A DNA stretch of 64,000 nt, from positions 1 to 64,000 of the forward strand of contig JACVCS010000007.1 of assembly GCA_016741915.1 (NCBI GenBank). Reading direction: 5' to 3'. This DNA comes from Phycisphaerales bacterium (GTDB taxonomy: Bacteria; Planctomycetota; Phycisphaerae; Phycisphaerales; UBA1924). How positions within the stretch are numbered: the first letter of the stretch is position 1; each line of letters opens with the position of its first letter. The translations under genes and the position numbers were made by a program. The notes beneath the pieces were generated by a model, which did not search any database, was not told the DNA's origin, and saw only the letters and a program-made list of their open reading frames with translations. Below, piece after piece: positions 9,331 through 54,777 of the stretch.

Positions 9331-9338
9331 GGCACACA

Positions 9339-36060: not shown

Positions 36061-36066
36061 TTTCGT

Positions 36067-37674
36067 TCATCGAGCCGCCTTAGTTCTCTCCAAAGGCCTC
36101 TTTCTTCGGGAATCGGTGCCAGCGGCGTGGTTCTCGGGCCCACTTCCGAGCCTTGCTAGCAGCACTCCGGCCGGCTCATCGTTTGGGTCCTGTTGGACGA
36201 GCTTGCCCTCGAAAGCCGCCTTGAGGATCGCCTGCCGCAGACGCGCGGCCCGGGCAAGCCCGCGCTGCACCTCCAGAGTCAGCGCATCGATCAAGGACAA
36301 CTTCTCTTTCACAATGTCGATAATGGCTTCCTGCTCCGCGATCGGCGGAAGCGGAAACTCGAGGGCTGCGAACCTCTGAGCGCCGAGATGGGCGATGCTC
36401 GTGGTAATCGATGCGATTTTGCGAAAGCGGCCCGCCCGGAACTGGGCAAGACAAACGATAAGCGCGTACTCAGGCACCAATGGGGCGATTGCGCGTTGGC
36501 GAACCAGGGTGTTCTGGAAGCAACCTCCAGGAAGCTCATCCCGGTACATCGCAGGCCGCCCGACGAGTTCCATGCTCTGGCCTTCGTTGAGCAGGATGTC
36601 GCCGTGGCGCAGTTCATAGGTCTCGAACTCCTCCGGCGTGAAGTTCATCTGCAGCACATCGCTGGTGTCGATTCGGTCTTCGTAAACATTGGCCACGCGG
36701 AGATAGGGACGCATGTGCGTGCCTGTGTGGTGTTCCGGCGCTCGCTGGCGGCCGAGTTGCACATCGCCGACCTGATCGTGTGTGGCCCAGCACCAGGTGT
36801 CTGGCAGGCCAGGCAATACCGTACTATGCGCGAGCGTGCCGGGAAGGAAGGGCTCCGGATAGCGGCTGCGCCACCCCTTGGGCGGCTGCTTGCCGTCCTT
36901 CTCGTACTTGGCGAGTGTGCGGCGTTCCCACTGGCGGCGGCGCTCGGCGAGGATGCGTTCCAGCAGCTTCGGCCCCGGCTCGTCGGGTGTGCCGTGCTGC
37001 TTCCGCCACGACTCGGTGAGCCGTCCCGTGACGGCGGCGTGCAGCACCGCCGCCCGATACCGCGACAGGTTCCGCTTCACCCGCTCCAGCGCCGCCACGC
37101 CCGCGGCCAGATCGGTGAACAACTCGTCGATCCGGTCGGCGATGCGGGTTTGCTCGGCGAGGGGAGGAATTCGCACATTCAAATGGTGAAACCGCTCGTG
37201 CGTGAGGTTCAGGCCACTATCGCTGATGCCTGTTTTCATCGCGTCGATCTGTGCCTGGATCGGCGGTGCTTGTAGATATGCCTCCATGAATCGTGGCTCA
37301 ACAAGATCGGGCCGAACACGAAAGCGGTACATCTTGCCGGAGAGAATCAATCGCGGTCTCGTTGCCCGGACTAGACACGGCACACCGCAGCGCACGCGGG
37401 GCCCAGCACATGTCATGAGGATGTCACCCGCCTTGACCTCAAGATTCGCGCGCGGGCGGAGTTTGGATGGCAGCAACTTGTTGTGCTGTTCCAGGTACTG
37501 CCCGTGCTGCACTGCCGTTGTCTTGAGCACGCCCCAGATCGCGTCGTCGGTCGATGGTTCCGCCTCGCACTGCGGACTCCAACCGTGGTGCAGCGTCCGA
37601 CCATCGTGCAATCGATCGAGCACGTCGGCGAGTGGCACGACACACCAGCCTGTTGGAAGCGGTGTATCGCTCAT
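36067..37674 (-). CDS. hsdS: Type I restriction-modification specificity subunit
   Basis: A 535-residue HsdS that chooses the target sequence for HsdM and HsdR. Two target-recognition domains are each followed by a conserved helix: IRIPPLAEQTRIADRIDELFTDL near residue 175 and FPLPPIAEQEAIIDIVKEKLSLID near 450. Between them lies a long spacer (LTESWRKQHGTPDEPGPKLLE...). Its start overlaps the hsdR stop as ATGA. Confidence 0.93.
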   Translation of the reverse strand: MSDTPLPTGWCVVPLADVLDRLHDGRTLHHGWSPQCEAEPSTDDAIWGVLKTTAVQHGQYLEQHNKLLPSKLRPRANLEVKAGDILMTCAGPRVRCGVPCLVRATRPRLILSGKMYRFRVRPDLVEPRFMEAYLQAPPIQAQIDAMKTGISDSGLNLTHERFHHLNVRIPPLAEQTRIADRIDELFTDLAAGVAALERVKRNLSRYRAAVLHAAVTGRLTESWRKQHGTPDEPGPKLLERILAERRRQWERRTLAKYEKDGKQPPKGWRSRYPEPFLPGTLAHSTVLPGLPDTWCWATHDQVGDVQLGRQRAPEHHTGTHMRPYLRVANVYEDRIDTSDVLQMNFTPEEFETYELRHGDILLNEGQSMELVGRPAMYRDELPGGCFQNTLVRQRAIAPLVPEYALIVCLAQFRAGRFRKIASITTSIAHLGAQRFAALEFPLPPIAEQEAIIDIVKEKLSLIDALTLEVQRGLARAARLRQAILKAAFEGKLVQQDPNDEPAGVLLARLGSGPENHAAGTDSRRKRPLERTKAAR

Positions 37675-40529
37675 GCCGTCAGCGCCTTGTTCATATCGGC
37701 GATGATGACCTCAAGCCGATCGCCAAAGAGTTCGTAGGCTTTGCCGAGGTTGCCGCGCTGGGCGAACCAGCCGTCGTGGAAGTCTTCCATCTCGATCGCC
37801 AGGCTGGTGGCGATGTGCTCGGCGATCTTGTCGAGCCACGCGGCCTGTTCGGCGGTAAACGTCACGCCCGCCGCCGCCTGCTGCGCACGCCAGGCCTGGT
37901 ACCGCTGCCGGACGACATCGGCGAACGGCGTCAACGGCTCCCCCCCGCCCCCCCCGGGCCGGAGCGTGTGCCGAATGAGCGAGACGAGGTCCGTGATGAT
38001 CTGCCCACCCTTGCCCTTGACCCTCGATGCGTCGAGAGCCTCAAAGCACCGCCAGAGTTCTTCGGGCGTTGCGGAGACGGGCGGGCGCTTGATCTGGTCG
38101 GCCAGTTCTTTCAGGTCGCGGAACTTCAGGCGGTCGGGCGTGGCCATGCCGAAGAAGACCTGGAGGGCGGTGAGTTCGTCCTTGTGCTCCTCGATGAACT
38201 TCTTGAAGTTCTCGATCTTGGTCTTGGCCTTGTCCAGCGCGGCCTGGGAGTAGCCGACCCCGAGTACCTCGTCTTTGCTCACGCGGTCGATGGTTTGCTC
38301 GTTGTCCAGCTTGATCTGCAAGAGCAGGTCGCGGAGCTTGGGGTCATAGAAGGGCTTGACTGCGTCCTTGATCAGCTCCTGCTCGGCGGCTTCGAGCTGC
38401 TTCTCCGTCAGCATCGAGAGCGCAACGCCGGGGTTCATCGCCTGCGCCTTGGCCTCAACATTGGCATCGTCGATCGCGGCGACGAGGCCGCTGACGAGTA
38501 TGTCGACGCTCTTGCCGCCGGCGTGGGCCTTCACGTCGGCGTGCTGCTTCTCCGACATGTCGGCGGCGAGGCGGTTGAGCTTGCCCGCCAGCGCGGAGAC
38601 GGCATCGGGGTCGGTGCCGCCGGCCTTGATGTAGTCCAGGACCTGCTTGAGCGACTTGTTGGGCTCGCGGTCGATCGGCCCCTTCTCGCTCTTGCACTGC
38701 TCGCAGACGCCCACGGCGTCGATGATGACGAAGCGGGTCTTGCTCTTGGCGTCGGGGGTGACGCCCTTGAGCATGTCGGGCGGCATGACGCGGACGCCGC
38801 GACCCTTCATCTGCTCGAAGTAGTTGCTGCTCTTGATGGAGCGCATGAAAAAGACGATCTCGACCGGCTTCACGTCGGTGCCCGTGGCGATCATGTCGAC
38901 GGTGACGGCGATGCGGGGGTTGAACGAGTTGCGGAAGGCGACGAGGACGTCCTCGCCCGTCTTGCCCTTGGTCTTCTCGTAGTAGGCCTCTTCGCGTTCC
39001 GTGCCGTCAGGACCGGTCACCTTGCGGGTCAGGCGCATCACGCCCGTGCGATAGGTGATCTTCTGGCAGAAGTCGTTGCCCTTGCCGAACTCCTCACGGA
39101 CGATGCGGACGATGTCGTCCGCGTGGGAGTCGTCCTTGGCGAAGATGATGGTCTTGGGAACCTCAGTGCGGCCCGGGAAGATGTCCACAAAGAGACGATC
39201 GCGGAAGGTCTGGATGACGGTGCGGATCTGGTCCTCGGCGACGACGGCGCGGTCGAGGTCGTCCGCGCCGTACTGGAGGTCTTGATCGAGTGCCTCCTGC
39301 CGTTCGGCGCGGGTCTTTCGGCTGCGCTTCCCGACGAAGTAGCCCGCATCGAGTTGGGAACCCTGGGCCGTGATCCGCGTGCGGATCTCGTACACGTCAT
39401 ACGGCACGTTCACGCGGTCGGCGACGGCTTGCTCGTGCGTGTACTCCATCACGAGGTTCTGGTTGAAGAACCCGATGGTCTGCTTACTCGGCGTCGCGGT
39501 GAGGCCGATCAGGAAGGCGTCGAAGTACTTCAGCACGTCGCCCCAGACGCTGTAGATGGAGCGATGGCACTCGTCGACGATGAGCACATCAAAGAACTCG
39601 GGCGGGATCGCGGCGTTGTAGGTGATTGGGACAGGCGGCTTCTTGAACGCGCCGGGTCCCCCCGCACCTTCGAACGCTGATCGCTCCTCGTCCTCCTCCG
39701 GGAGATCTGGCTGGTCCGTCAGCACTGAGTACAAACGCTGGATCGTGGTGATGACGACGCGGTTGATCGGGTCAAAGCGGTTCTTCTGCGGGAACGCGAT
39801 GTTGTAGAGCTTGTCGAACGTGTGCCGTTCGCCGGGTGGCTGGAACTGCTGGAACTCCTTGAGCGTCTGCGTGCCGAGGTTTGTGCGATCGACGAGGAAG
39901 CACACGCGACGCGCGTGACCGTGCTTGATGAGGCGGTACGCGATGTTCGCAGCTGTGAAGGTCTTGCCGGAGCCTGTGGCCATCTGGATCAGGGCCTTGG
40001 GTTTGGCGAGTCGGAGCGACTTCTCCAGGTTGACGATAGCGGTGTGCTGCTTGGGCCAAAGGCCGTCGGGCGTCAGCGCTGGCATCTCCCGGAGGCAACT
40101 GCGGAGGGGCTTCTCATCCTGCACCATCTCGCGGAGCGTCTCGGGTCGGTGGAATGAGAAAATGTCGCGGCTTCGAGCGTGCGTCTCCATCCAGTTGGTG
40201 AACTGCGTCACCTCGCCTGTGGATTCGTATTGGAAGGGGAGGGGGCGACGCCACGCCGGAAGGGTGGATGGAAGGCCGTCGCTGTAGCTGGCGGATTGCC
40301 CCTCAACGCCGCGAAGTGTGTGGCCGGCCGGCTTCGCTTCGACCACTCCGATCGCCTTGCCGTCAACGTAGAGCAGATAGTCGGCCGGGCCGTGAGCGCC
40401 GGGGAACTCCGTCACGGCGAGTCCGAGACCGGCACCGAGGTTCATGTCGCGGTAGGACTGCACCATCCATCCGGAAGCGGCGAGCTTTGCATCGATCTGT
40501 TCGCGGGCGAGTTGTTCAGGGGTGGGCAT
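37671..40529 (-). CDS. hsdR: Type I restriction enzyme, R subunit
   Basis: A 952-residue motor and nuclease subunit. The N-terminal nuclease domain has the PD-(D/E)xK end GVVEAKPAGHTL near residue 60. The helicase has TATGSGKT-type Walker A (MATGSGKTFTAANI), DECH box LIVDECHRSIYSVWGD, motif III LTATPSKQT and motif VI MKGRGVRV. A C-terminal EcoEI-type domain follows. I chose the ATG at 40527-40529 with GGGAGGT upstream; the open frame extends 63 bases further. It is the first gene of the operon. Confidence 0.93.
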   Translation of the reverse strand: MPTPEQLAREQIDAKLAASGWMVQSYRDMNLGAGLGLAVTEFPGAHGPADYLLYVDGKAIGVVEAKPAGHTLRGVEGQSASYSDGLPSTLPAWRRPLPFQYESTGEVTQFTNWMETHARSRDIFSFHRPETLREMVQDEKPLRSCLREMPALTPDGLWPKQHTAIVNLEKSLRLAKPKALIQMATGSGKTFTAANIAYRLIKHGHARRVCFLVDRTNLGTQTLKEFQQFQPPGERHTFDKLYNIAFPQKNRFDPINRVVITTIQRLYSVLTDQPDLPEEDEERSAFEGAGGPGAFKKPPVPITYNAAIPPEFFDVLIVDECHRSIYSVWGDVLKYFDAFLIGLTATPSKQTIGFFNQNLVMEYTHEQAVADRVNVPYDVYEIRTRITAQGSQLDAGYFVGKRSRKTRAERQEALDQDLQYGADDLDRAVVAEDQIRTVIQTFRDRLFVDIFPGRTEVPKTIIFAKDDSHADDIVRIVREEFGKGNDFCQKITYRTGVMRLTRKVTGPDGTEREEAYYEKTKGKTGEDVLVAFRNSFNPRIAVTVDMIATGTDVKPVEIVFFMRSIKSSNYFEQMKGRGVRVMPPDMLKGVTPDAKSKTRFVIIDAVGVCEQCKSEKGPIDREPNKSLKQVLDYIKAGGTDPDAVSALAGKLNRLAADMSEKQHADVKAHAGGKSVDILVSGLVAAIDDANVEAKAQAMNPGVALSMLTEKQLEAAEQELIKDAVKPFYDPKLRDLLLQIKLDNEQTIDRVSKDEVLGVGYSQAALDKAKTKIENFKKFIEEHKDELTALQVFFGMATPDRLKFRDLKELADQIKRPPVSATPEELWRCFEALDASRVKGKGGQIITDLVSLIRHTLRPGGGGGEPLTPFADVVRQRYQAWRAQQAAAGVTFTAEQAAWLDKIAEHIATSLAIEMEDFHDGWFAQRGNLGKAYELFGDRLEVIIADMNKALTA

Positions 40530-40808
40530 TGGACCTCCCGCCCTTCGCGCTTCCAACCCCGTCATCGTTGAGCCAAAGTTCGACCGCTCCACTACGAAGC
40601 CGCTCGCTCTCTCCGTCGTGCTGGCCCGGCCCTCTCCCCTTGTGCACCATGGGTCTCTGCGATGCCAATTTCATTACCAAAATGCACTCGAAGATCCCAC
40701 AAATGGTGATCCTCACAAGCGTCTGGACAGAATCGCTGGATGCGAAAGCGCCACCGGCCATGCTCCGAGTGTAGCTGTTCTGGTCCTCAAGTTGGTATCC
40801 ATCGCCTC

Positions 40809-41672
40809 TTAGGCGAGTCCGGATCGCGCACAAGCCGGATGCTCTTGCTGCTTGCGACGTGCCCGCACCCACGAACCCAGCCATCGTACTGCGTATGGGC
40901 TTAAAACTCCCGCCGCGTGGTAGGTGTAGAGCTCCTTCGCGTCGGTGTCGCTGCCGCGGATCGTCGCCTTCGCCTGACCCTCGGCACTCGCCACCGAGTA
41001 GTACCACGCATCCGACCCGTCCAGCCCGTCCGCCGGAACGCTCACATCTTCACGCCACGCCAGCAGCGTGCACCCCGGGTCCCACTTGTACTCCTTGATC
41101 GTCGTGGTGGCGGTGGAGTCCTTCGCCGTCACCACCCGCCCCAGCATGTCGTAGGTGTAGGTGTAATGCCGCCCGTCGGCGGTCAGCATGTTCGCGTCGT
41201 TGTACGTCGGCGTGTAGTCCGCCGTAGCGTCGTTGTTCGTGTCACGCGCCGTGACCTTCCCGGCCTTGTCCAGCGTCCGGCTCTCCGTCGCCCCGCCCCA
41301 GAAGCTCTCGTTCATCGAGATCGTGTTGAACGTCGCCTTCCCGTCCACACGCAGCGTGAAGTCCTCGTCGGTCCGCTTATCGCCCGTGACAATCTCGTCC
41401 CCCGTCCCGCCACCGGCCTCGCCCGTGCGGAACTTGGTGATCCGCCCCATCGTGTCACGCTTGATCTCAACCGAGTCCTTGTGCTCGTAGTACAGATCGC
41501 GGATCGTCGTCGTCAGCCCGCGGTCGTCGTACGAACGGCGCTTGTGCTCGAACTTCGTCGCCGTGCCGGCGTACCGCTCCCAACTGTCGATCACCACGCG
41601 GTTGAACCGGTCGATGATCTCCTGCGAGCCGCTGACGTACGTGGCGCTGAGACTCTGGATTGCGAACCACAC
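40809..41672 (-). pseudogene. Detached Rhs core fragment
   Basis: An open frame of 287 residues that is a piece of Rhs/YD-repeat core with no start of its own. The first dozen residues are unrelated. Then about 245 residues copy the main Rhs protein with few changes, and after YTYHAAGV it breaks off into an unrelated tail (LSPYAVRWLGSW). It has no secretion signal and no toxin tip. It looks like the 5' remainder of an old displaced Rhs cassette, useful only as recombination substrate. Confidence 0.75.
40906..41645 (-). repeat. Rhs core duplication A'
   Basis: A 740-base direct repeat of 45220-45959 inside the main rhs gene, nearly identical by eye, same orientation and same length. Confidence 0.85.
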
Positions 41673-41684
41673 GGCAGATTTACT

Positions 41685-42122
41685 CTACGAGCGCTGCCCA
41701 CACTCCGGACATGTGGATCCTTTGCTGCCCGGATATCCGCACTTAATACAGCACCCAGATGCTGGAACCCTTCGACGCCACTTCCATACGGAAAAAACTG
41801 TTATACAGGCAACTACTGGCCAGAGGGGCAAACCAATCATGCTGTGCATTGGATACTCTCGAAAACACGGCAAAGCATAATCTGGGACTTCCCTCTTTAA
41901 ACTGTAATAGCTCGTTTCCATACATCCGATCTCAATCGAAGATCGAGGGGTGATAGAAACACTGTCCCATGTATACCTTATCGCGCCGCGTCCCGAATAA
42001 ATCGATGAGTTCGGCATATTACAATAAAACAACAACCAGAACGATGCCAAATAATAAACCCAAACAGCGCCAGCAATAAATAAGTACCAGCATCTTATTG
42101 TCAAAGCTTTTAATCGAAGCAT
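41685..42122 (-). CDS. Probable immunity membrane protein for displaced tip
   Basis: A 145-residue protein that starts one base after the stop of the displaced Rhs tip (TAA-C-ATG). Two membrane segments are seen, residues 10-33 (CWYLFIAGAVWVYYLASFW) and about 98-115 (LPLWPVVACITVFSVW), and a C-terminal zinc ribbon (CCIKCGYPGSKGSTCPEC) common in planctomycete membrane proteins. Position directly after a toxin tip and low GC suggest an immunity protein in the inner membrane; the sequence family itself is not recognised. Confidence 0.6.
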   Translation of the reverse strand: MLRLKALTIRCWYLFIAGAVWVYYLASFWLLFYCNMPNSSIYSGRGAIRYTWDSVSITPRSSIEIGCMETSYYSLKREVPDYALPCFREYPMHSMIGLPLWPVVACITVFSVWKWRRRVPASGCCIKCGYPGSKGSTCPECGQRS

Positions 42123-42123
42123 G

Positions 42124-43455
42124 TTATGGCCATTCAGTGGGGAGGTATGGAATACGAGGTCCAGGGATGAATGGCGGAACAACTGGCGGAGAATCACTGT
42201 TACATTCTGCTCCGGTAGCGTCTGTGCCGACAACCGTTCCGGGAACACACTTTTGAAAGAGGCTCTTTATTGAGCGGTCAACGTCTTTGTGACATTCGTA
42301 CAATATAACATCGTACTGTTTCACAAACTGCTTCCAGCACGTTGAAAAAGAGCGACCACCTGGCCTACGGCTCTCGTGACAGCATGAATACCAATGAGCA
42401 CGCAACTCGGAGCACGCGAGTGCGCAGTAATTCACTTTTGTGAAACCGTCTTGCGGGGATCGATATGCAAAGCTAACACCTAAACATGCCCCGTTCTTGC
42501 ACATATCCCCAGCGTGAATCAGTTCATGAAGCAATGTGTTGCACTTGTCGGGAGCCCCCGGACGCAGGCGAATAGTGCAACCACCGCATTCCGTTCGGCC
42601 GTTTGGGGGAAATAGTCGGTCTTCACCAATCTGATCTTGGCAAACAATCTTCCAAGAACTGCAAAGCGAACTGCCACTACACGACGATTGCATGTATGAT
42701 AGTGCAACGTCAAAGTACGGGTCGCCGCGGCATCCTTCAATAGCATCAGCTGCGCACTTGTCCATTTCACCGATACCGGAGAATTTTGCTCTACATCTGC
42801 TGATACAGTGGGTTACAACAGCATTATCTTGATCGCTCAACCGTGAGCAACAGGATTCGCAGTCGGCAAGTGTTCGGCTTGTCATACACTCGCCAATGAT
42901 CCATGAACACAAGATCAATGGCCAAGGTACCCACCTCGCCCTCGCCGTGAGCGTCATCGTCGACGGATCCGTCGGCCCGCTCAGCGTGTCGTCGTACATC
43001 TGGCCCGCCGCCAGGTAGACCATCTTGAACACACTCCCCGCCGCCCGGCCCTGCGCCGGGGCTTCGAAGAACGTGTCCATGAACCGGTTGTAGTCCGCCG
43101 TGTCCGCGTCGCCGTCCTGGTCGAAGTCCGTCTTCACGTTCGCGGCGATGAAAAACCCGTCCGTCCCCGAGAAGAACGCGTTGTAATCACCTTCGTTCGT
43201 GCCGCCGTTGGCACCCGTGTTCCCCGCGTCGTCGGCCACATCGGTGACAAACAACTGCGTCGGCACCCGATTCGCACGGTTGTGCTGCCAGCGTTCGACC
43301 GTCATGCCGCCCGAGGTCTTCACGTGCGTGAGGTTCCCTTCCGCGTCGTACAGCGGATAGTACCGGTGCGTGAAGGTCCCGGTTGCCGCGTCGGACCACT
43401 TCGCCGCGTCGGTCCCGCCGTTGCCGTACCCGGCCATGTGCCCGTTGCCGTGCAC
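42124..43455 (-). CDS. Displaced Rhs tip with HExxH metallopeptidase toxin
   Basis: A 443-residue frame starting at a GTG. Residues 1-170 copy the end of the main Rhs protein (HGNGHMAGYG to STMTLTAR), including the dockerin-like DYNAFF...DFDQDGDADTADYNRF. From about residue 172 the sequence is new, Cys-rich and AT-rich. A zinc-metallopeptidase motif HELIH lies in CNTLLHELIHAGD (about 318), and a downstream CSELRAHW may give the third ligand. It has no signal peptide or ribosome site, so it is probably silent until recombined into the main gene. Confidence 0.75.
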   Translation of the reverse strand: MHGNGHMAGYGNGGTDAAKWSDAATGTFTHRYYPLYDAEGNLTHVKTSGGMTVERWQHNRANRVPTQLFVTDVADDAGNTGANGGTNEGDYNAFFSGTDGFFIAANVKTDFDQDGDADTADYNRFMDTFFEAPAQGRAAGSVFKMVYLAAGQMYDDTLSGPTDPSTMTLTARARWVPWPLILCSWIIGECMTSRTLADCESCCSRLSDQDNAVVTHCISRCRAKFSGIGEMDKCAADAIEGCRGDPYFDVALSYMQSSCSGSSLCSSWKIVCQDQIGEDRLFPPNGRTECGGCTIRLRPGAPDKCNTLLHELIHAGDMCKNGACLGVSFAYRSPQDGFTKVNYCALACSELRAHWYSCCHESRRPGGRSFSTCWKQFVKQYDVILYECHKDVDRSIKSLFQKCVPGTVVGTDATGAECNSDSPPVVPPFIPGPRIPYLPTEWP

Positions 43456-43461
43456 ATCACG
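42943..43461 (-). repeat. Rhs duplication B'
   Basis: About 520 bases, a direct repeat of 44668-45185 in the main rhs gene, with a few changes and one added codon in the dockerin-like part. In the main gene this segment is contiguous with segment A (45220-45959), but here the two lie apart and in reversed order. Confidence 0.85.
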
Positions 43462-43548
43462 CAGGATAACATGAATGCAACCTTACTGATATATGTTTAT
43501 ATTAATTTGCACATACACGGGTTTTGGCGTGTACAATGCGGGATTATG

Positions 43549-43983
43549 TCATTCTCGATTAATTATCACATCGACGTATCTATCCGGATAAAACCTCCAA
43601 GCTGTCACCGTACTTGAAGCATCGATAAGACGCCTGGGCACAATAATATACTTTACGTCATTGCTGTCTTCATTTTTCGAAAGAACAATACTAATCTTAT
43701 CCGTTGAATATACAATGTCATTATCATCCTCATAACCATTCAGCACTACTAAATCAATACCCATGCGCTGGTTGTTAATCACAAGACTTTTTTTCTCTCG
43801 ACTCATGTATGCATACTTATCTGTAAAAAGCAAATCTGCGACGGCTCTGGCGACCATTTTATCTCTGATAATTGACGATTGTGATATATTTGTATGCGAG
43901 TTAATAGTTGTCAATATGCAGCTCGTCACGCTTGCAGAAACTATTGCTAAAGCAATGAGTATGACAATTGTTTTGCGTCTCAT
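43549..43983 (-). CDS. Probable immunity lipoprotein or secreted protein for main Rhs tip
   Basis: A 144-residue protein whose ATG overlaps the rhs stop as ATGA. The N-terminus MRRKTIVILIALAIVSASVTSC is a signal peptide, with VTSC as a possible lipobox. The mature part is charged and beta-rich and has no recognised family. Strongly AT-rich compared with the surroundings. Position and coupling make it the likely immunity protein against the metallopeptidase tip; an outer or periplasmic location would protect against toxin delivered there. Confidence 0.65.
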   Translation of the reverse strand: MRRKTIVILIALAIVSASVTSCILTTINSHTNISQSSIIRDKMVARAVADLLFTDKYAYMSREKKSLVINNQRMGIDLVVLNGYEDDNDIVYSTDKISIVLSKNEDSNDVKYIIVPRRLIDASSTVTAWRFYPDRYVDVIINRE

Positions 43984-46900
43984 TTATTGTACCTCGCACA
44001 GCCAAACATCTGCATGCAGTAGCCAAATGCCAGACTGCGTCGTTTGGGCTGAAGAAAAGTTCGTCCACACGGCACAAATCCAATTCCAGTAGGCACAGCA
44101 TTGATAGAACTTTCAACCATTTCGCATATTTCCGCTGCAGCTTGGCATCTACGTGGGTCTCCGAGTTGTGAAGCCTTCTTGCATAGCCTCTTGAGCCCGG
44201 GCTCGGCGCAGTATGCTTGTATCTCCATGCCTACTGTTTCTTTGCAGCCAGCAAATGTAAACGAGGTGCAGCCCATGTCGCAAACTTGGCGATAGTGCAT
44301 TAATTCATGAATTATTGTATCAATCCATTCTCGTACTGTGGGACACAACCCTGTTATACCTCTACACAGTTTGATTGATACAGAGCCAGATAACAAACTG
44401 CATGACGTGACGCCTGCATCAGGGCCTGACAAGCAAGGCATGCTACTAAACGTCACGCTGCGACCTTTGCAGGCTCCGCTAGTTGCGAGGTCTTGAAGTA
44501 GTTGCTTGACACGAGGATCGTTCAGTGCGGCGTTGATTTGATGCCAGCAAATATCGTCTTCCTCGATATCAGGTTGTATCGGTGGGGGTAAAGGATCTGG
44601 AACGCGAGGGCCAATCTCCCCAGGCCAGCCTGGTGAGCATACTGCCAGATCCCCCACCCACTTACTCCTCGCCGTCAGCGTCATCGTCGAAGGATCCGTC
44701 GGGCCGCTCAGCGTGTCGTCGTACATCTGCCCCGCGGCCAGGTACACCATCTTGAACACACTCCCCGCCGCCCGGCCCTGCGCCGGCGCTTCGAAGAACG
44801 TGTCCATGAACCGGTTGTAGTCCGCCGTGTCCGCGTCGCCGTCCTGGTCGAAGTCCGTCTTCACGCTCGCGCCGTTGAAGTACCCGTCGGCCGCGAAGAA
44901 CGCGTTGTAATCACCCTCGTTCGTGCCGCCGTTCGCACCCGTGTTCCCCGCGTCGTCGGCCACATCGGTGACAAACAACTGCGTCGGCACACGGTTACCC
45001 CGGTTGTGCTGCCAGCGTTCAACCGTCATGCCCGCCGAGGTCTTCACGTGCGTGAGGTTCCCTTCCGCGTCGTACAGAGAATAGTACCGGTGCGTATAGG
45101 TCCCGGTTGCCGCGTCGGACCACTTCGCCGCGTCGGTCCCGCCGTTGCCGTACCCGGCCATGTGCCCGTTCCCGTGCACATCACGAACGATCACCCGCTT
45201 ATCACCCGAACGCCCGCCCACTCCCGCCGCGTGGTAGACATACAGCTCCTTCGCGTCGCTGTCGCTGCCGCGGATCGTCGCTTTCGCCTGACCCTCGGCA
45301 CTCGCCACCGAGTAGTACCACGCATCCGACCCGTCCAACCCGTCCGCCGGCACGCTCACGTCCTCACGCCACGCCAGCAGCGTACACCCCGGGTCCCACT
45401 TGTACTCCTTGATCGTCGTGGTCGCGGTGGAGTCCTTCGCCGTCACCACCCGGCCCAGCATGTCGTAGGTGTACGTGTAGTGCCGCCCGTCGGAGGTCAG
45501 CATGTTCGCGTCGTTGTACGTCGGCGTGTAGTCCGCCGCAGAGTCGTTGTTCGTGTCACGCGCCGTGACCTTCCCGGCCTTGTCAAGCGTCCGGTTCTCC
45601 GTCGCCCCGCCCCAGAAGCTCTCGTTCATCGAGATCGTGTTGAACGTCGCCTTCCCGTCCACACGCAGCGTGAAGTCCTCGTCGGTCCGCTTATCGCCCG
45701 TGACAATCTCGTCCCCCGTCCCGCCACCGGCCTCGCCCGTGCGGAACTTGGTGATCCGCCCCATCGTGTCACGCTTGATCTCAACCGAGTCCTTGTGCTC
45801 GTAGTACAGATCGCGGATCGTCGTCGTCAGCCCGCGGTCGTCGTACGAACGCCGCTTGTGCTCGAACTTCGTCGCCGTGCCGGCGTACCGCTCCCAACTG
45901 TCGATCACCACGCGGTTGAACCGATCGATAATCTCCTGCGACCCGCTGACGTACGTGGCACTGCCCGCACCGCTGTGCAGACGTTGACGCACCTGCGGCT
46001 GCGGCAGATCGGTCTCGATCACCCGCGAAGCTCCGAGATAGCGGTATTCCGCCACCGTCACCGGCGTGCCGTCGTTGATGACCACCTTCGTGACGCGGCT
46101 GGCCGCGTCGTCGAGCGAACTGCTCGATGAGTACTGCAACTCGATGTTGCGCTTCTGGGTCGCGGCGCGGTAGGTGCGCTCGTTGGTCTTGCGGATCAGC
46201 GCCGGGCCCTCGCTCCCGCCGCCGGTGGCCTTGGCGTAGTCGTACTGCACCGACCAGTCGTCCCCGCCCGACGAGGCCACGGCGGAGTTGAAGTCGGTGT
46301 ACTTCGCCAGCACGTTGCCCCAGCCGTCATAGGTGGTCTTGATCTCGTTGACCACACTCCCCGAGCCTGCGGTGGCGTTGTCGTACTGCGTGACGGTCTC
46401 GGGCATGCCGCGGTCGTTGAAGACCGTGCTCACCCGGCGGACCCAGCCGTTGATGTTCGTCCCCAGCGTGGTGCCGCGCAGGTGCGTCTGCCGCCCGGCT
46501 GTGTCGTAGTCACGTTCCAGTACGCCGCCGATCTGATCCTCGGACCAGATGACCTGTCCGAGTGCGTTGTAGCGGTAACGCTGGCGGCGCTGGGCCTCGG
46601 TGGTCGAGGTCGTTGAGATCGGGTTGAGGACCTTCAGCAGCAGCCGGTTCGAGGCGAGCTGCGAGTCGGGCGAGCTGCCCTTGGCCACGCCGTAGACGTA
46701 CTCGGTGACCTGATCGTTCACGTCCGCGCCGGAGGAGAAGTTCGTCGGCGGGTTGCCGTCGGTATCGTCGCCCTGCATGTCGATCCAGGTGTGGGTGCGC
46801 TGCCCGGTGGAGGCGGAGTATTTCGTTCGGGTGTAGAGGTCCGTCGAGCGGGCCTCGTCGGTCAGCGTCGCCGTGCCGGTGTAGTTGCTGATCACGCAGA

Positions 46901-49900
46901 CCTGCCGCCCCGCCGCGTCGTACAGCACGCGTGTCGTCACGGCCGTGGCCTGGTTGCCCGACGTCCGCAGCAGGTTCTCCTTGGTCTCAAGCACCGCGCC
47001 GTCGTCGGCGTACACCGTCGAGGTGCGGATCACCGTGCTGGAACGGTTCGGCGGCGTGCCCATCGACGAGCCGCGGGCGTACGTCGCGTCCCCGTTGGTG
47101 CCGAGCTGCACCGTGTCGGTGCCCCGGCCCAGTTCGTCGTAGTACATCGCGGTGATCTGCGCACGCCCCGCGAGGTTCGCGTACGTCACCGTCGTCAGGT
47201 CGTTATCGGCGTTAGAGTCCAGCGCACCCGTGCCGGTGGTGTCGGTGTGGTGCCGCTGGATCAGCACGCTCATGCGCACCTGACCGGTGTTGTTGTCGTA
47301 GACGCTCTGACGCTCTTCGAGCACGTGATCGCCCGTGACCGTCCCCGCGTCGGCGTACGCGCTGTCGTTGGTCTTCGCCAGCACGAAGCTGTGCGTGCCG
47401 CGCCCCAGCCGGTCGTAGCGGGTCTTGCTGAGCTGCGATGAACGGGCCTTGATCACACGCCCGCCGTCGTCGAACCACGTCAGCGATTGCAGGTTGTCGT
47501 CGTCCGCGCCGGTGGACTGGTTGATCTTGTGCGTCTGGCTCTTCCACGTGCGGCCGCGCTCGTCGTAGAACATCTGGCTCAGCGTCACGCGCGAGGTCGC
47601 TGTCGAAGTTGGATCCGTACTGACGCTGAGCCCGGCGGCGGAGGAGTACCCGCCCACCGCCAATGTCCGCCCGAGGTTGTCGTACTTGATCACCGTGTGC
47701 GGCGCAGCGGGGTTCTCACGCACCACCGCGCGCCCGCGGTAGTCGTACGTCACGACGGTCACACGCTGATCGGTCGTCGTGCCCCAGTTGCCGTCGGCGT
47801 CCTGGATCGAGCGGGTCATGTGCCCGTTCCCGCCCGAGGCCGAGCCCCCCGAACCGTTGCCGTCGTATCGCATCTCGGCAATCTTCGTCATGTTGTCGGT
47901 GCCGCTCTCGCCGCCCGGGAACGACGAGTCGTTCGTCCCGATCCAGCTCTCGTACGCGCGGCCCGCCTCGTCAAACTTCGTCCGCGAGATCGTGCCCGAG
48001 GCGTCCTTCATCCGCACCCGGCGGCCCATGTCGTCGTAGCCGGTCTTGCTGGCGATGTAGTCGGTCCCCTCCGTCCCCGCCGACGACGGCAGGCCCGAGG
48101 GCACGGTGTTGTACATGCGGCTTTCTTCCAGACGCGAGCCGTCCTTGGAGTACACCGACGTGTTTACCCGGCTGAGGTTGACGTTCGAGCCGCCACGCAG
48201 CGACGAATCGATCGCCGTCACCGGGTTGCTCGACGACGAAGAGACCCAGGTGCTTAACGCCGCCGATGTCCCCGAAGACGACACCGCCAGCGTGAGGGAG
48301 AGCTCACTGCCGCCGGCGAGGTTGCTGACGCTGTAACTCACCGGGCCGGAGTAGATCGTCGAGGGCGTGCTGACCGCCCGGGGGACGGAGAAGCTCACCA
48401 TCCGCTGGTCCGCCAGCCGTGTGACGAAGCTGCTCGTCACACGCCCGTCCGGCAGCGTGACCGTCGAAGTGCGCCCCTGCGCGTCGTAGGTCATGGTGGT
48501 GATGACACGCGTGCCCTCGGCGGTCTCAGTAATCCCGAAGTTCGTCGACGGGTCGTCGCCCGAAGCAAAGTCGCTGCCGTGGCTCGTCTGCGCATCGCGG
48601 ATGGTCTTGATCGGCAGGCCGAACGAGTCGATCGCCGTGTAATCGAAGATGTCGGAACTCCCCGACGCGCCGCTGGGCCTCGGGGAACGCGTGAACGCCG
48701 TGGTCCCGTCCGTACGGATGTACCGCACCATCGCCGTGGTTGTGTTGGCACCGTTGTTCGCCAAGGCGACCGCCGGCATCGTCGTGGTGACAACCTTCGG
48801 CTGTAAATAAAGCGGGTTGCTGGTGGTCGAACTGTGGTAGGTGTAGCCGTAGGTGGTTTCATCGTACGCGCTGGTGGTGCCCGATGACGACGTCTCGTTC
48901 TTGTACGACCGCGTGGCCGTGACGAACGGACGAACCACCGTGGCGGTGCCGATCACCAAGTCACGTTGCGAGAAGGTCATGAACGACTGGTACGCCGCCG
49001 TACCGCCCGAGCCCGCCTTCACCTTCACCCCCTGCACGAGCCCCGCAAGGTCGCCCGTGCTGATCCGGTCGAACTCCGTCACAAGCCCCGATCCCGCATG
49101 CGAGAATGTTCCGCTGCTGTGCGTGTACCCGGAGTTTGCCGCGGGCGAATAGACCGTCGTAACCAACCCCGCCGAGTCGCGCACAACCTCCGTCGCCCAC
49201 ACTTTGCTCGGCGATCCCGACGGATCCGAACTCGTCAGCACCTTCGAGAGTCCTTGCCCGGTTTCGTCGAAGTAAAAAGTTTGATAGGTCCCGTCGGGCT
49301 GGGCCACCACGGTGCGGTGGTGCCAGTCCGTGTCGTAGCCCGATGTCCCGCTGAACGAACCGTTGGTCGAGTACGTCACTGTGTGCGTGCCGTTGAGCCC
49401 GCCGGCGCACCCGCACGTCCCGTTGGCGAAGACCTTGCTCACCCGAAGATCCCCGCTCGAGACATACTCAAGCCACAACTCGCTGTACGGCTTCAGATCC
49501 GCGTCGGTCGCGGTAACGAAGTCGTCGTCGAGGTTCCCGTCCTGATCCCAGTCGAACTTTCTCGTCCCTTCGAACCCCACAACCAACTTGATCTGGTGCG
49601 GCGAGCCACGCGAACCGTCGCTGTTCGACCAGGTCGTGTCGTAGTAGCGGTAGTATTTCTTCTTCACGCTGCTCACCGTCGGGTCCGACAGCGGCGTCGT
49701 CGTGGTCACGAGTTTCAGGTCCCCCGCCATGCCGTGCGCGTCGGTGTCGCTGGTGTAATAGCTGTATTCAACCCGCCCGACCTCGCTCAGCCCCGTCGGG
49801 CTCGCCCACGAGCCGCCGGTCTTGGTCTCCGCCTTCACTTGTGTCAGGCGGATCGCCGCGCCGATGCTCGACCCGGAGTAGCTGTAGGTGTAACGACGGT

Positions 49901-50753
49901 CGGCGGAGTCGTACGCGACCAGGATCCGCCCCGCCCCGTCCCAACCAGCCGACACGGCCATTCCGAGCGTTGTGCTCCCGACATACGCGGTGTTCCCCGC
50001 CGCATCCAGCATCTTCCACATCTGGCCCGTCGCCGCGCCCGCACCCTCATTGAACCCGAGGAACACGAAGCGATTGCCGGATTGATCGGTGTACGTGTAG
50101 GTCTCCGGGGTTTCTTTATCGCCCGAAGCAAACTCGATGACTCCCGCCGTGCCGTTCTTCCCCTTGAAGACCGAGGAGCTCTCACCGGTCCGTTTGAACT
50201 CCAAGTACCGATCGGCCCCAACAATGATGTACAGCACATCGTCCACCGATGAGCTGCCCGCCGCAAAGACGAGCTCCGGCTGAGAGGTCTGCGACCAGTT
50301 CCATCCCTGCAGGCCGTTGGAGTTCATCGCCCCGACAAGATCCTGCTGCAGCGGGTTGTACGTCCGACCGACGATCCACGCCAGCCCCTTGCTCGGCAGC
50401 GCCAGATCCACGTCCGTCGGCGCGTACGCGCCCGTGGCGAGATCAACATCGCCCAGTCGACCGCCGGGCATCGAACCGCCCATCGGGTTCGCCGATGAGG
50501 ACCAGCCCAGCGGCGCACCGGCACGCGTTGAGCCGTCGATCCCCGTTGAGCGCCAGTTCGCCAGCGGGCGCAGCCCCTGCACCGACGTTGTCGTCGTGCT
50601 GTACGTGGTCGTCAGCGTGGTGGTGTTCAGTTCGAGCAGCGCCTGCGCACGGCTCTCGCTGCTCATCGCGGCCAGGCCGCACACACCGCCCGCGAGCATC
50701 ATCGCCGCGCGTGAAGACAACCGCCAAGAAAGCCGCTTGATCGTGGTGCGCAT
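43980..50753 (-). CDS. Secreted Rhs/YD-repeat polymorphic toxin, metallopeptidase tip
   Basis: A 2257-residue protein. A signal peptide (MRTTIKRLSWRLSSRAAMML... ending SRAQA) is followed by a long beta-rich region and dozens of YD-type repeats (GRVTSSF, YDDMGRRVRM, YDELGRGTD, YDMLGRVVTAKD). Near residue 1920 a dockerin-like segment has two EF-type loops (DFDQDGDADTADYNRF). After STMTLTAR a Cys-rich tip begins, with the zinc-metallopeptidase motif in IIHELMHYRQ and a third-ligand-like EIQAYCAE. Rhs shells wrap such tips and release them into rivals. The ATG at 50751-50753 has AAGGAG upstream. Confidence 0.88.
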   Translation of the reverse strand: MRTTIKRLSWRLSSRAAMMLAGGVCGLAAMSSESRAQALLELNTTTLTTTYSTTTTSVQGLRPLANWRSTGIDGSTRAGAPLGWSSSANPMGGSMPGGRLGDVDLATGAYAPTDVDLALPSKGLAWIVGRTYNPLQQDLVGAMNSNGLQGWNWSQTSQPELVFAAGSSSVDDVLYIIVGADRYLEFKRTGESSSVFKGKNGTAGVIEFASGDKETPETYTYTDQSGNRFVFLGFNEGAGAATGQMWKMLDAAGNTAYVGSTTLGMAVSAGWDGAGRILVAYDSADRRYTYSYSGSSIGAAIRLTQVKAETKTGGSWASPTGLSEVGRVEYSYYTSDTDAHGMAGDLKLVTTTTPLSDPTVSSVKKKYYRYYDTTWSNSDGSRGSPHQIKLVVGFEGTRKFDWDQDGNLDDDFVTATDADLKPYSELWLEYVSSGDLRVSKVFANGTCGCAGGLNGTHTVTYSTNGSFSGTSGYDTDWHHRTVVAQPDGTYQTFYFDETGQGLSKVLTSSDPSGSPSKVWATEVVRDSAGLVTTVYSPAANSGYTHSSGTFSHAGSGLVTEFDRISTGDLAGLVQGVKVKAGSGGTAAYQSFMTFSQRDLVIGTATVVRPFVTATRSYKNETSSSGTTSAYDETTYGYTYHSSTTSNPLYLQPKVVTTTMPAVALANNGANTTTAMVRYIRTDGTTAFTRSPRPSGASGSSDIFDYTAIDSFGLPIKTIRDAQTSHGSDFASGDDPSTNFGITETAEGTRVITTMTYDAQGRTSTVTLPDGRVTSSFVTRLADQRMVSFSVPRAVSTPSTIYSGPVSYSVSNLAGGSELSLTLAVSSSGTSAALSTWVSSSSSNPVTAIDSSLRGGSNVNLSRVNTSVYSKDGSRLEESRMYNTVPSGLPSSAGTEGTDYIASKTGYDDMGRRVRMKDASGTISRTKFDEAGRAYESWIGTNDSSFPGGESGTDNMTKIAEMRYDGNGSGGSASGGNGHMTRSIQDADGNWGTTTDQRVTVVTYDYRGRAVVRENPAAPHTVIKYDNLGRTLAVGGYSSAAGLSVSTDPTSTATSRVTLSQMFYDERGRTWKSQTHKINQSTGADDDNLQSLTWFDDGGRVIKARSSQLSKTRYDRLGRGTHSFVLAKTNDSAYADAGTVTGDHVLEERQSVYDNNTGQVRMSVLIQRHHTDTTGTGALDSNADNDLTTVTYANLAGRAQITAMYYDELGRGTDTVQLGTNGDATYARGSSMGTPPNRSSTVIRTSTVYADDGAVLETKENLLRTSGNQATAVTTRVLYDAAGRQVCVISNYTGTATLTDEARSTDLYTRTKYSASTGQRTHTWIDMQGDDTDGNPPTNFSSGADVNDQVTEYVYGVAKGSSPDSQLASNRLLLKVLNPISTTSTTEAQRRQRYRYNALGQVIWSEDQIGGVLERDYDTAGRQTHLRGTTLGTNINGWVRRVSTVFNDRGMPETVTQYDNATAGSGSVVNEIKTTYDGWGNVLAKYTDFNSAVASSGGDDWSVQYDYAKATGGGSEGPALIRKTNERTYRAATQKRNIELQYSSSSSLDDAASRVTKVVINDGTPVTVAEYRYLGASRVIETDLPQPQVRQRLHSGAGSATYVSGSQEIIDRFNRVVIDSWERYAGTATKFEHKRRSYDDRGLTTTIRDLYYEHKDSVEIKRDTMGRITKFRTGEAGGGTGDEIVTGDKRTDEDFTLRVDGKATFNTISMNESFWGGATENRTLDKAGKVTARDTNNDSAADYTPTYNDANMLTSDGRHYTYTYDMLGRVVTAKDSTATTTIKEYKWDPGCTLLAWREDVSVPADGLDGSDAWYYSVASAEGQAKATIRGSDSDAKELYVYHAAGVGGRSGDKRVIVRDVHGNGHMAGYGNGGTDAAKWSDAATGTYTHRYYSLYDAEGNLTHVKTSAGMTVERWQHNRGNRVPTQLFVTDVADDAGNTGANGGTNEGDYNAFFAADGYFNGASVKTDFDQDGDADTADYNRFMDTFFEAPAQGRAAGSVFKMVYLAAGQMYDDTLSGPTDPSTMTLTARSKWVGDLAVCSPGWPGEIGPRVPDPLPPPIQPDIEEDDICWHQINAALNDPRVKQLLQDLATSGACKGRSVTFSSMPCLSGPDAGVTSCSLLSGSVSIKLCRGITGLCPTVREWIDTIIHELMHYRQVCDMGCTSFTFAGCKETVGMEIQAYCAEPGLKRLCKKASQLGDPRRCQAAAEICEMVESSINAVPTGIGFVPCGRTFLQPKRRSLAFGYCMQMFGCARYNK

Positions 50754-52264: not shown

Positions 52265-52858
52265 TCACCACTTCCGACCCGCAACCACCTGAACCACCCG
52301 CCAAGGCGCGATATGGTCCAAATACCGCGCTGTCGTCGAGATGTCCGCGTGGCCGAGCTGCTTGCTGATCACGCCGATGTCGATGCCTTCCTCGCGTAGC
52401 TCCGCGGCCAGCGTGTGCCGCAGGCCGTGGGGGTGGACGCGCTTGGCGATCCCCGCGGCTTCGCCCGCTCGTTTGAGCATTCGCCGCACATGCCCGGGAG
52501 CAACCGCCCGGCCCCAGGCGGTGCAGAAGATTGCTTGCCCGGCGTCGTAGCCCATGGCCGATCGGCGTTGCAGCCACTGGTTCAGCACGTGCAACGCACC
52601 GTCGTCGATTCCCACCGTTCGTGATCGGCTGCCTTTGCCCCGCATCACTCGCACGGCGTGTCTTGCGGGGTCCACGTCTTTCTCCCGCAGCGCCAGCGCT
52701 TCGCTGACCCGCAGGCCCGTGCGGTAGAGCACGGCGATGAGGGCGCGATCGCGTAGACACGCCCAGCGGTCGCCCGCGAGGGCGTTCAGCAACCGGCGCA
52801 CTTCCTCGGGGGTCAGAACCTCGGGCGGGAACCGCCGCCCGTGTGTTGTCGTCGTCAT
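52265..52858 (-). CDS. Short tyrosine recombinase
   Basis: A 197-residue integrase-type protein that has only the catalytic domain. Residues seen: Arg in TGLRVSEAL, HGLRHT (His-x2-Arg), LGHADISTTARYL with the last His and the Tyr nucleophile. XerC/D-like enzymes are about 300 residues with an N-terminal core-binding domain; here only about 20 residues precede the catalytic fold. The upstream DNA stays open to 52975 but shows no SAM-like domain. It may be a truncated integrase or a naturally short one. Confidence 0.8.
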   Translation of the reverse strand: MTTTTHGRRFPPEVLTPEEVRRLLNALAGDRWACLRDRALIAVLYRTGLRVSEALALREKDVDPARHAVRVMRGKGSRSRTVGIDDGALHVLNQWLQRRSAMGYDAGQAIFCTAWGRAVAPGHVRRMLKRAGEAAGIAKRVHPHGLRHTLAAELREEGIDIGVISKQLGHADISTTARYLDHIAPWRVVQVVAGRKW

Positions 52859-53105
52859 CGTGGGAGCATCCCGGTCTCGCGGTGGGGGGGTGGGTACGCA
52901 GCACACCGCGTTGATTGCCGCGACCCATGTTCGTACCGCTTTGGTGGGAAAGCGGCACAAACACCTTGACCTCAACGGGCGCGGAACGCCAGCGCTTTCC
53001 CCGACCTTGCCGCGATTGCAGGAGATCCCCTCGATGTGCGACGGCTCGCGGAATCAACGCCGCGTTGCCTTGCTGTTCCGCACGGGCATGCCAATGTGTG
53101 ACACA

Positions 53106-53123
53106 CGCGGGACGGAACCCGCG
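53106..53123 (+). promoter_or_regulatory. Conserved leader hairpin (second copy)
   Basis: CGCGGG-ACGGAA-CCCGCG, two bases before GGAGA of the next gene. It is equivalent to 7395-7413 with one base pair fewer and another loop. Confidence 0.5.
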
Positions 53124-53137
53124 ACGGAGACACGAAC

Positions 53138-53455
53138 ATGAACGCGACCACGAAGACCACGCTCGACCTGGCCAAGACCCTCGCCAAGAGCGGGTTCCAC
53201 ATCCCCGCGATCGAGATCCACACGCCCGACGGCCGCACGTGGAACGTCGCAACGGTCCCCGCCGGACGCGGCCGCCACCTCGACGGGCACTGGGGCCCAC
53301 GCCCCGGCGCGCTCGGCGGCTTCCGCCTCTTCGAGATCGACCGCGACACCGACACCCCCGACGAGCACGACGCCATCGACGGCGACACCTGGACCGCTGA
53401 CGAGCTGATCGACTACCTCCGGGCGGTCGGCCAGCCCAAGAACACGACGAACTGA
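53138..53455 (+). CDS. Conserved hypothetical protein, paralogue of 7429-7782
   Basis: A 105-residue protein, nearly the same as residues 1-105 of the 117-residue protein in the prophage; it stops earlier, after QPKNTTN. Leader, ribosome site and following terminator hairpin are all conserved between the two loci, so the whole unit was copied. Function unknown. Confidence 0.75.
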   Translation: MNATTKTTLDLAKTLAKSGFHIPAIEIHTPDGRTWNVATVPAGRGRHLDGHWGPRPGALGGFRLFEIDRDTDTPDEHDAIDGDTWTADELIDYLRAVGQPKNTTN

Positions 53456-53482
53456 AGCCCGCGCGTTGCGGGCTTTGCTGTT
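53454..53482 (+). terminator. Intrinsic terminator or attenuator (second copy)
   Basis: Stem AAGCCCGC / GCGGGCTT with a 5-base loop, then TGCTGTT, overlapping the stop codon as at 7781-7810. Confidence 0.6.
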
Positions 53483-53517
53483 GTCCAGAGACACCCCGAA
53501 CCCCAAGGAGCACGACC

Positions 53518-54024
53518 GTGACGAACCGAACACCCAAGCAGGCCAGGACCGCCAAGCCCAGCACCCCCCGCTCCGCCAAGAGCGCCAAGCACGCCGCCCG
53601 CGCCGAAGGGGCGGCCAAGACGGACCGCCTCCGCAAGGCCGCCCTGGCGGAGATCAACGCCCGCATCGACGCGAACGCGGGCGAAGCGTCAGCCGACAAC
53701 TCTCCCGCGAACGCCCAACACACCCACGCATCGCCGGAAACCCTACCAAAGCCGAGCACCCGCCGCGGCAGCACGAAGCCCGGCAAGCCCAAGCGTGTCA
53801 GCGCCCTCGACGCGGCGGCGGCCGTGCTCGCCGAGTCCGCTACGCCCATGCGTGCGGTCGATCTGATCGCCGAGATGCAGAACCGCGGACTCTGGCGGTC
53901 CCCCGGCGGCCGGACCCCGGAGGCCACGCTCTACGCCGCGATCATCCGTGAGATCGCCGCCAAGGGGGAGAACGCCCGCTTCAGGAAGCACGCCCGGGGG
54001 CTCTTCACCGCGGGCCAACGCTAA
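53518..54024 (+). CDS. HARE-HTH domain protein (second copy)
   Basis: A 168-residue protein with a GTG start and AAGGAG seven bases upstream. Residues 1-95 are basic and low-complexity; residues about 97-165 are the HARE-HTH winged helix (SALDAAAAVLAESATPMRAVDLI...[15 protein letters not shown]). The first codons (MTNRTPK) and the ribosome site equal those of the 87-residue gene at 7852, while the body equals the HARE-HTH gene at 8524, so this gene looks like a fusion made by deleting the two genes between. Confidence 0.8.
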   Translation: MTNRTPKQARTAKPSTPRSAKSAKHAARAEGAAKTDRLRKAALAEINARIDANAGEASADNSPANAQHTHASPETLPKPSTRRGSTKPGKPKRVSALDAAAAVLAESATPMRAVDLIAEMQNRGLWRSPGGRTPEATLYAAIIREIAAKGENARFRKHARGLFTAGQR

Positions 54025-54040
54025 GACGAACCGCCACGCG

Positions 54041-54322
54041 CTACACACCTTCGACCATCGAGCCGGGCCGGACCATCGCGTAGCGGGGTTCGCCCGGTTC
54101 GCTCGTGCCGGGCGGCACGCACTCGCAGCGCCAGTTGGCGAAGCACGCCTTGCAGAAGACCGTCGTGCACCCATCGTCGCCGGGAAGCACCACGTGCGAA
54201 GCGCCGGCGAGCCCGTCGTTGCGCAGCCGCATGCACCACGGGCAGCGCGACGACGGCGGGAGGGCACGGACCTTGTCCCGCTCCAGCCTCGCGAGCTTGT
54301 TCATCAGTGATCGGTACCCCAC
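54041..54322 (-). CDS. Small zinc-binding hypothetical protein
   Basis: A 93-residue protein with two Cys pairs, CPWC near residue 27 and CKAC near 57, plus CEC near 67, probably a zinc-binding fold. The start is a GTG with GGAGA eight bases upstream; an ATG seven codons in is the alternative. It ends 16 bases after the HARE-HTH stop on the other strand and is the last gene of the methyltransferase operon. Confidence 0.6.
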   Translation of the reverse strand: MGYRSLMNKLARLERDKVRALPPSSRCPWCMRLRNDGLAGASHVVLPGDDGCTTVFCKACFANWRCECVPPGTSEPGEPRYAMVRPGSMVEGV

Positions 54323-54363
54323 GCCGTATTCTCCGTGCAGCGGTGGTGCGAGACTCCGGACCG

Positions 54364-54771: not shown

Positions 54772-54777
54772 GCTCGG

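What the first reader, a model, noticed from the sequence alone, without database searches (positions are those of the whole stretch)
40809..50753. Rhs locus with two exchangeable metallopeptidase tips and paired immunity genes
The main Rhs tip and the displaced tip are different sequences, yet both are Cys-rich HExxH domains, and each is followed at once by an AT-rich small gene with signal peptide or membrane segments (overlap ATGA in one case, one-base gap in the other). The displaced tip keeps about 520 bases of shared core, enough for recombination into the main gene. This is a textbook tip-switching layout, here in a planctomycete with a dockerin-like segment just before the switch point.
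Basis: partly seen in the sequence, partly recalled or inferred. Interest (0 to 1): 0.7.

Follow-up and report, generated by a model that had tools for sequence, protein, structure and literature searches.

The report
Rhs tip-switching locus with Atp23-like protease tips
This planctomycete carries a large secreted Rhs protein whose variable end is a zinc-protease domain related to the mitochondrial protease Atp23, with a second spare protease end and its partner gene parked just downstream; the layout is a known one, but this protease family as an Rhs tip appears not to have been described in the papers I could search.

Summary
A 2,257-residue Rhs gene (50753-43980, minus strand) ends in a Cys-rich HExxH tip and overlaps (ATGA) a small lipoprotein-like gene. 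Downstream lies a displaced copy of 522 bp of core (93.9% identical) with a different Cys-rich HExxH tip and, one base later, a small membrane-protein gene. Both tips fall into one family. Profiles built from six other planctomycete Rhs tips recognise both, and the best member matches Pfam Peptidase_M76 (Atp23) at E 4e-10. In a sample of 392 planctomycete genomes every place above the M76 cut-off is an Rhs tip. A class relative carries a tandem array of displaced M76 tips with membrane-protein genes, so this is a recurrent system. The core ends before the canonical DPxGL switch motif, so 'textbook' is only partly right. Toxicity, protection and exchange between strains could not be tested. Verdict: a new variant of the known main-plus-orphan Rhs design, most likely an envelope-acting protease toxin with membrane-anchored immunity.

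The parts
43980..50753 (-). main Rhs gene (ATG at 50753; the ORF is open up to 50885)
   Evidence: YD repeats TIGR01643 E 2.8e-8; 27-41% identical relatives in the same family and order
50640..50753 (-). predicted Sec signal peptide MRTTIKRLSWRLSSRAAMMLAGGVCGLAAMSSESRAQA
   Evidence: read from sequence; no predictor available
45220..45963 (-). core part A of the main gene, duplicated downstream
44667..45185 (-). core part B of the main gene, duplicated downstream; ends at the switch point
44793..44966 (-). dockerin-like EF-hand segment (NEGDYNAFF...DFDQDGDADTADYNRFMDTFF)
   Evidence: same kind of segment at about 59 places in the own genome, often at C-termini; a different EF-hand insert at the same position in family relatives
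43983..44651 (-). tip 1, Cys-rich M76-like metallopeptidase (HELMH at 44295-44309; MEIQAYC)
   Evidence: profile of six other Rhs M76 tips, E 2.7e-7; relative P0001 E 5e-9
43549..43983 (-). putative immunity gene 1, 144 aa, lipoprotein-like N-terminus (VTSC)
   Evidence: ATGA overlap with tip 1; KD 2.70; no relative in 198 class genomes
42940..43461 (-). displaced core B' (no upstream part, no ATG in frame before it)
   Evidence: 93.9% to main over 522 columns; dN/dS 0.14
42127..42939 (-). tip 2, Cys-rich M76-like metallopeptidase (HELIH at 42514-42528; ACSELRAH)
   Evidence: profile of six others, E 2.8e-5
41685..42122 (-). putative immunity gene 2, 145 aa, two membrane segments and a C-terminal zinc ribbon
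   Evidence: one base after tip 2 stop; KD 1.91; TM plus zinc-ribbon relatives in 59 of 198 class genomes
   Evidence: 96.6% to main 45963-45220; dN/dS 0.11

Best explanation
A polymorphic-toxin (Rhs) locus of the main-plus-orphan kind whose tips are M76/Atp23-like zinc peptidases. The long YD-repeat protein is exported through a Sec signal peptide and presents a Cys-rich, probably disulfide-bonded protease at its C-terminus. The protease is inferred to cleave an envelope protein of a competitor. The gene directly after each tip encodes a lipoprotein or membrane protein that would protect the producer where the tip acts, outside the cytoplasm. Homologous recombination between core B and B' (522 bp, same reading frame) would fuse tip 2 to the main gene and delete tip 1 with its immunity gene. 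Recombination between A and A' (744 bp) would remove both tips and leave a tipless protein. Shown: architecture, tip relationship, recurrence in other planctomycetes, displaced copies. Inferred: toxicity, target compartment, immunity, actual switching.
For: Sharp loss of identity at the tip with a 94% core copy. Both tips recognised by a profile built without them, with 500 shuffles each scoring at most 8.7 bits against 26.7 and 20.1. Relative P0001 matches PF09768 above the cut-off, and 7 of 8 family members match PF09768 at E up to 1. Every above-cut-off M76 place in 392 planctomycete genomes is a C-terminal Rhs tip or displaced Rhs fragment. G093 holds an array of displaced M76 tips, each followed by a single-TM protein. 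In 24 Rhs tip/next-gene pairs, 18 next genes pass a hydrophobicity test and 2 more have a signal or lipoprotein N-terminus by eye; the three Cys-poor tips have soluble neighbours. Two inverted Rhs genes in G030 share 6,191 bp at 100% but have different tips. Low dN/dS of both displaced cores. In Salmonella LT2 an orphan tip sharing 95% over 522 bp with the main gene recombines into it and becomes toxic (PMC3967940).
Against: No activity or protection data. Neither window tip passes the Pfam M76 cut-off alone. Structure models were poor and gave no fold match. Gene imm2 belongs to a common planctomycete membrane/zinc-ribbon family; the clusters of it that I looked at were not beside Rhs genes. 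The DPxGL motif associated with tip release is missing. No second strain is available.
Confidence: 0.72

Rival explanations
1. The tips are not toxins but processing or maturation proteases of a surface protein of the cell itself, and the next genes are anchors or assembly factors.
For: Surface-type protein with signal peptide and dockerin-like segment; metallopeptidases that release toxins are known in PVC-delivered polymorphic toxins (PMC3482391); mitochondrial Atp23 is a processing protease (own knowledge).
Against: Position at the extreme C-terminus, very different alternative tips on the same core, displaced tip-plus-gene pairs, and other tip types (Cys-poor tips with soluble neighbours on C135) on Rhs genes of the same genome.
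Confidence: 0.13
2. The displaced copies are inert debris of past duplications and deletions; there is no functional switching.
For: B' has no in-frame ATG ahead of it and no export signal; A' has lost its tip; truncated core fragments also lie on C135.
Against: Tip 2 and imm2 are intact open frames; dN/dS of 0.11-0.14; the same state in Salmonella was shown to be functional after recombination (PMC3967940).
Confidence: 0.2
3. The arrangement is partly an assembly artefact that joins variants of several strains in a metagenome bin.
For: Draft genome of 160 contigs; the near-identical copies are the kind of sequence that assemblers confuse.
Against: Copies differ by 3-6% and have unique flanks; the same layout occurs in other genomes and on a second contig; contamination estimate 1.2%.
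Confidence: 0.07
4. The tips act on predators or other eukaryotes rather than on bacteria.
For: Atp23-like family; Sec-exported large YD-repeat protein.
Against: A gene of immunity type beside nearly every M76 tip with DNA downstream (G493 ambiguous) implies that the producer is sensitive.
Confidence: 0.07

Closest known systems
Rhs main plus orphan tip/immunity loci of Salmonella LT2 (PMC3967940)
   Same: full-length Rhs gene, downstream orphan tip with about 522 bp of shared core at 94-95%, immunity gene after each tip, orphan lacking start and export signals
   Different: planctomycete; Sec signal peptide; tip junction upstream of the missing DPxGL motif; tips are metallopeptidases; extra tipless core piece after the second pair
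Peptidase M76 (PF09768, mitochondrial Atp23)
   Same: HE[LMF]xH, following Cys, ACxELRAY-type third-ligand motif; the closest relative of tip 1 is above the Pfam cut-off
   Different: C-terminal tip of a bacterial Rhs protein; window tips below the cut-off; extra cysteines
Tox-MPTase1-5, Tox-HopH1 (PMC3482391)
   Same: HExxH zincin tips on RHS proteins; Tox-MPTase1, Tox-MPTase4 and Tox-HopH1 are listed in planctomycetes
   Different: Tox-MPTases are described there as distantly related to Wss1, and no M76 or Atp23 is mentioned; no Pfam Tox-MPTase match to the window tips up to E 10. Identity with Tox-MPTase1 could not be excluded, because I could not see its alignment

Membership tests
Rhs main/orphan polymorphic toxin locus | long YD-repeat N-terminal body | tested here: met
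   TIGR01643 E 2.8e-8
Rhs main/orphan polymorphic toxin locus | variable C-terminal tip after a sharply bounded conserved core | tested here: met
Rhs main/orphan polymorphic toxin locus | displaced tip with partial core, without start or export signal | tested here: met
Rhs main/orphan polymorphic toxin locus | small gene directly after each tip | tested here: met
   protection itself not testable
Rhs main/orphan polymorphic toxin locus | DPxGL at the core/tip border | tested here: not met
   present in most family relatives. This motif marks the usual border; its absence also recurs in other Rhs proteins of this group (G290, G103, L065), so I treat it as a variant, not as exclusion
Rhs main/orphan polymorphic toxin locus | tip exchange between strains | not testable with these tools
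   one genome per species; the same-genus genome has no match to this core. Within relative G030 two identical cores carry different tips
Peptidase M76 | profile match above the curated cut-off | tested here: inconclusive
   tip 2 11.6 bits and tip 1 none against cut-off 25.2; relative P0001 40.2 bits; family profile E 2.7e-7 and 2.8e-5
Peptidase M76 | HExxH plus downstream Glu motif | tested here: met
   invariant HE..H, Cys and E..A columns in 8 sequences
Peptidase M76 | zinc-dependent proteolysis | not testable with these tools
   needs protein
Tox-MPTase families | profile match | tested here: inconclusive
   no Pfam match to E 10; it is not certain that all five families have Pfam models
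T6SS-delivered Rhs | PAAR or other T6SS N-terminus instead of a signal peptide | tested here: not met
   Sec-like N-terminus read from sequence and no such domain; the genome does encode a T6SS sheath protein
Dockerin | Pfam dockerin match | tested here: not met
   none; only EF-hand-like loops

The most novel reading that the evidence does not exclude
Bacterial Rhs tips are a main prokaryotic home of the M76 family, and mitochondrial Atp23 and these toxins share a recent common origin (one was captured from the other), so the toxins attack membrane-embedded respiratory or ATP-synthase subunits in the target envelope.
Probability: 0.1. Interest if true: 0.75.

Novelty: new variant of a known kind. 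Interest (0 to 1): 0.48.

Why it matters
It adds an Atp23/M76-like protease class to the Rhs toxin repertoire, shows tip displacement at work in planctomycetes, and suggests a rule that can be tested: Cys-rich tips come with membrane-anchored immunity and Cys-poor tips with soluble immunity. If the protease target is found, it may say something about where mitochondrial Atp23 came from.

Tried and rejected
Structure: both AlphaFold models had low confidence (pLDDT 47 and 53, three-sequence alignments) and Foldseek found nothing. I kept to window and the search for related loci sequences for those jobs, as the tool requires, so deeper alignments were not used. PDB sequence search: only sub-threshold zincins such as Spartan. 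Tip 1 in viral contigs and two M76 tips in plasmids: none. Alignment search of viral contigs: not possible, too divergent. imm1 relatives: none. The idea that imm2-type zinc-ribbon genes cluster beside Rhs genes: their clusters showed no Rhs proteins. The idea that the Rhs dockerin segment copies the host's common tail in every genome: not so in G030. A circular-permutation origin of B'/A' (A' ends 34 bp before B' begins in the main gene) was considered; it is possible, but remnants of separate displaced units explain it as well. A rank test of Cys content against membrane-type neighbours was not significant as scripted (p 0.11); the contrast appears only after two signal-bearing neighbours are reclassified by eye, so it is a lead.

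Full report
OBSERVATION. The main ORF is 50885-43980 on the minus strand (2301 codons from a GTG; the likely start is the ATG at 50753, followed by a Sec-type signal peptide ending AQA). Its last 223 residues hold 17 Cys and HELMH; the core has 0.25% Cys. Its stop overlaps the ATG of a 144-aa gene (ATGA) whose N-terminus is strongly hydrophobic (KD 2.70) and ends in VTSC, a lipobox-like sequence. Downstream, 43461-42940 repeats main 45185-44667 over 522 columns at 93.9%. The identity stops abruptly, and a different 271-aa tip with 25 Cys and HELIH follows. One base after its stop starts a 145-aa gene with two membrane segments and a zinc ribbon. GC drops from about 65% in the core to 38-51% in tips and small genes.

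WHAT THE TEXT OF THE FINDING LEFT OUT. After the second small gene lies a third core piece, 41649-40906, equal to main 45963-45220 at 96.6%; it runs into unrelated sequence and has no tip. In the main gene the two displaced pieces are adjacent, separated by only 34 bp. Both displaced cores differ from the main gene mainly at synonymous sites (dN/dS 0.11 and 0.14), as expected if they diverged as parts of working genes. Recombination of B with B' would put tip 2 in frame on the main gene; recombination of A with A' would leave a tipless protein (inference from sequence).

WHAT THE TIPS ARE. Alone, the tips give no Pfam match above cut-off. A relative of tip 1 was found at the C-terminus of a YD-repeat protein in a Phycisphaerales MAG; it matches Peptidase_M76 (PF09768, the Atp23 family) at E 3.9e-10, above the cut-off, and tip 1 matches it at E 5e-9. 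A profile of six Rhs M76 tips made without the window sequences scores tip 1 at E 2.7e-7 and tip 2 at E 2.8e-5 (search space 1000); 500 shuffles of each reach at most 8.7 bits against 26.7 and 20.1. HE..H, the following Cys and E..A are invariant in eight sequences, and 7 of the 8 match PF09768 at E up to 1. Structure prediction failed to add evidence.

RECURRENCE. Of 392 planctomycete genomes, four have PF09768 matches above cut-off, and all are Rhs tips or displaced Rhs fragments (G106 judged from its near-identical match places and scores to G093). G093 has a main Rhs gene with an M76 tip and a single-TM neighbour, then displaced units with a second M76 tip, a copy of the first (98.4% over 1.9 kb) and a different tip, each with a TM-type neighbour. 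G103, in the same family as the window, has a YD-repeat protein with EF-hand loops, an M76 tip and an overlapping lipoprotein-like gene. So the combination M76 tip, Rhs body and membrane-type neighbour recurs in distant relatives. The neighbour of the G493 tip is ambiguous, and the contig with P0001 ends inside its tip.

THE WIDER RHS FAMILY. Relatives of the main protein (27-41% identical over long stretches) occur in many genomes of the family and order; none was found in the same-genus genome. Most carry an EF-hand insert at the position of the dockerin-like segment, then the canonical GRWTRRDPLGYVDG...DPxGL stretch, then Cys-rich variable tips. The window Rhs lacks that stretch in both main and displaced copies, as do G290, G103 and L065. 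Several relatives have displaced core copies. In G030 two inverted Rhs genes share 6,191 bp at 100% and end in different tips, which is direct evidence of tip mosaicism in this group. The window genome has a second Rhs locus on contig C135 with main, displaced and truncated units, Cys-poor tips and soluble neighbours.

MECHANISM. Most likely a Sec-exported, surface-presented Rhs body carries a zinc protease that works outside the cytoplasm, guarded by lipoprotein or membrane immunity. The compartment inference rests on the Cys-rich tips and on 18 of 24 next genes passing a hydrophobicity test, plus two with signal or lipoprotein N-termini by eye. The three Cys-poor tips have soluble neighbours. 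As scripted, the rank test gave p 0.11, so the contrast is a lead only. The switching step has a close precedent in Salmonella LT2: 95% identity over 522 bp, orphan toxin activated by recombination (PMC3967940). A comprehensive survey (PMC3482391) lists five Tox-MPTase families and others, but neither M76 nor Atp23 occurs in its held text, and I found no paper linking Atp23 with Rhs toxins. Only open-licence papers were searched, so prior description elsewhere is possible.

CONTEXT. The locus lies between a type I restriction system (32808-40592) and an integrase (52265-52975), with a resolvase further along, which fits a mobile island. The genome also encodes a T6SS sheath protein, but the Rhs N-terminus looks Sec-dependent.

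Noticed in passing
L049 (own genome, contig C135), 8200-15924: Second Rhs locus in the same genome: main gene with canonical core and Cys-poor tip, displaced unit with another tip and gene, a truncated third core, and a 231-bp piece of the window-type core (90%) fused behind it out of order.
   Followed up: partly
window 44793-44966 and about 59 places in the own genome (L006-L020): A NNGVNEGDYNAFF dockerin-like segment, often doubled, sits at or near the C-terminus of the 15 proteins checked and inside the Rhs core; it may be a genome-specific attachment or sorting tail.
   Followed up: partly
L129, L131, L132: Tandem arrays of six to ten small proteins with membrane segments and a C-terminal zinc ribbon (YNLTGNVSGVCPECG), the family of imm2, without Rhs genes nearby; they look like possible polyimmunity clusters.
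   Followed up: partly
L056 (G030), 1291-7481 and 18598-12408: Two inverted Rhs genes with 6,191 bp at 100% identity but different C-terminal tips.
   Followed up: partly
window 7384-10321 and 53094-55716: Two related element pieces (75-88% identical; one includes a ParB/DNA-methylase gene) lie at either end of the restriction/Rhs region, with integrase (52265-52975) and resolvase (59383-60903) genes near the second.
   Followed up: no
window 27358-31890: 1510-aa protein with SIR2, TPR and PIN (TPR-GreAB-C-PIN) domains next to the type I restriction genes, a possible defence gene.
   Followed up: no
L066, tip ending near 3710: Another Cys-rich HExxH tip (LYHELLHAWHHC) on an Rhs protein of the same order, perhaps a further relative of the M76 tips.
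   Followed up: no
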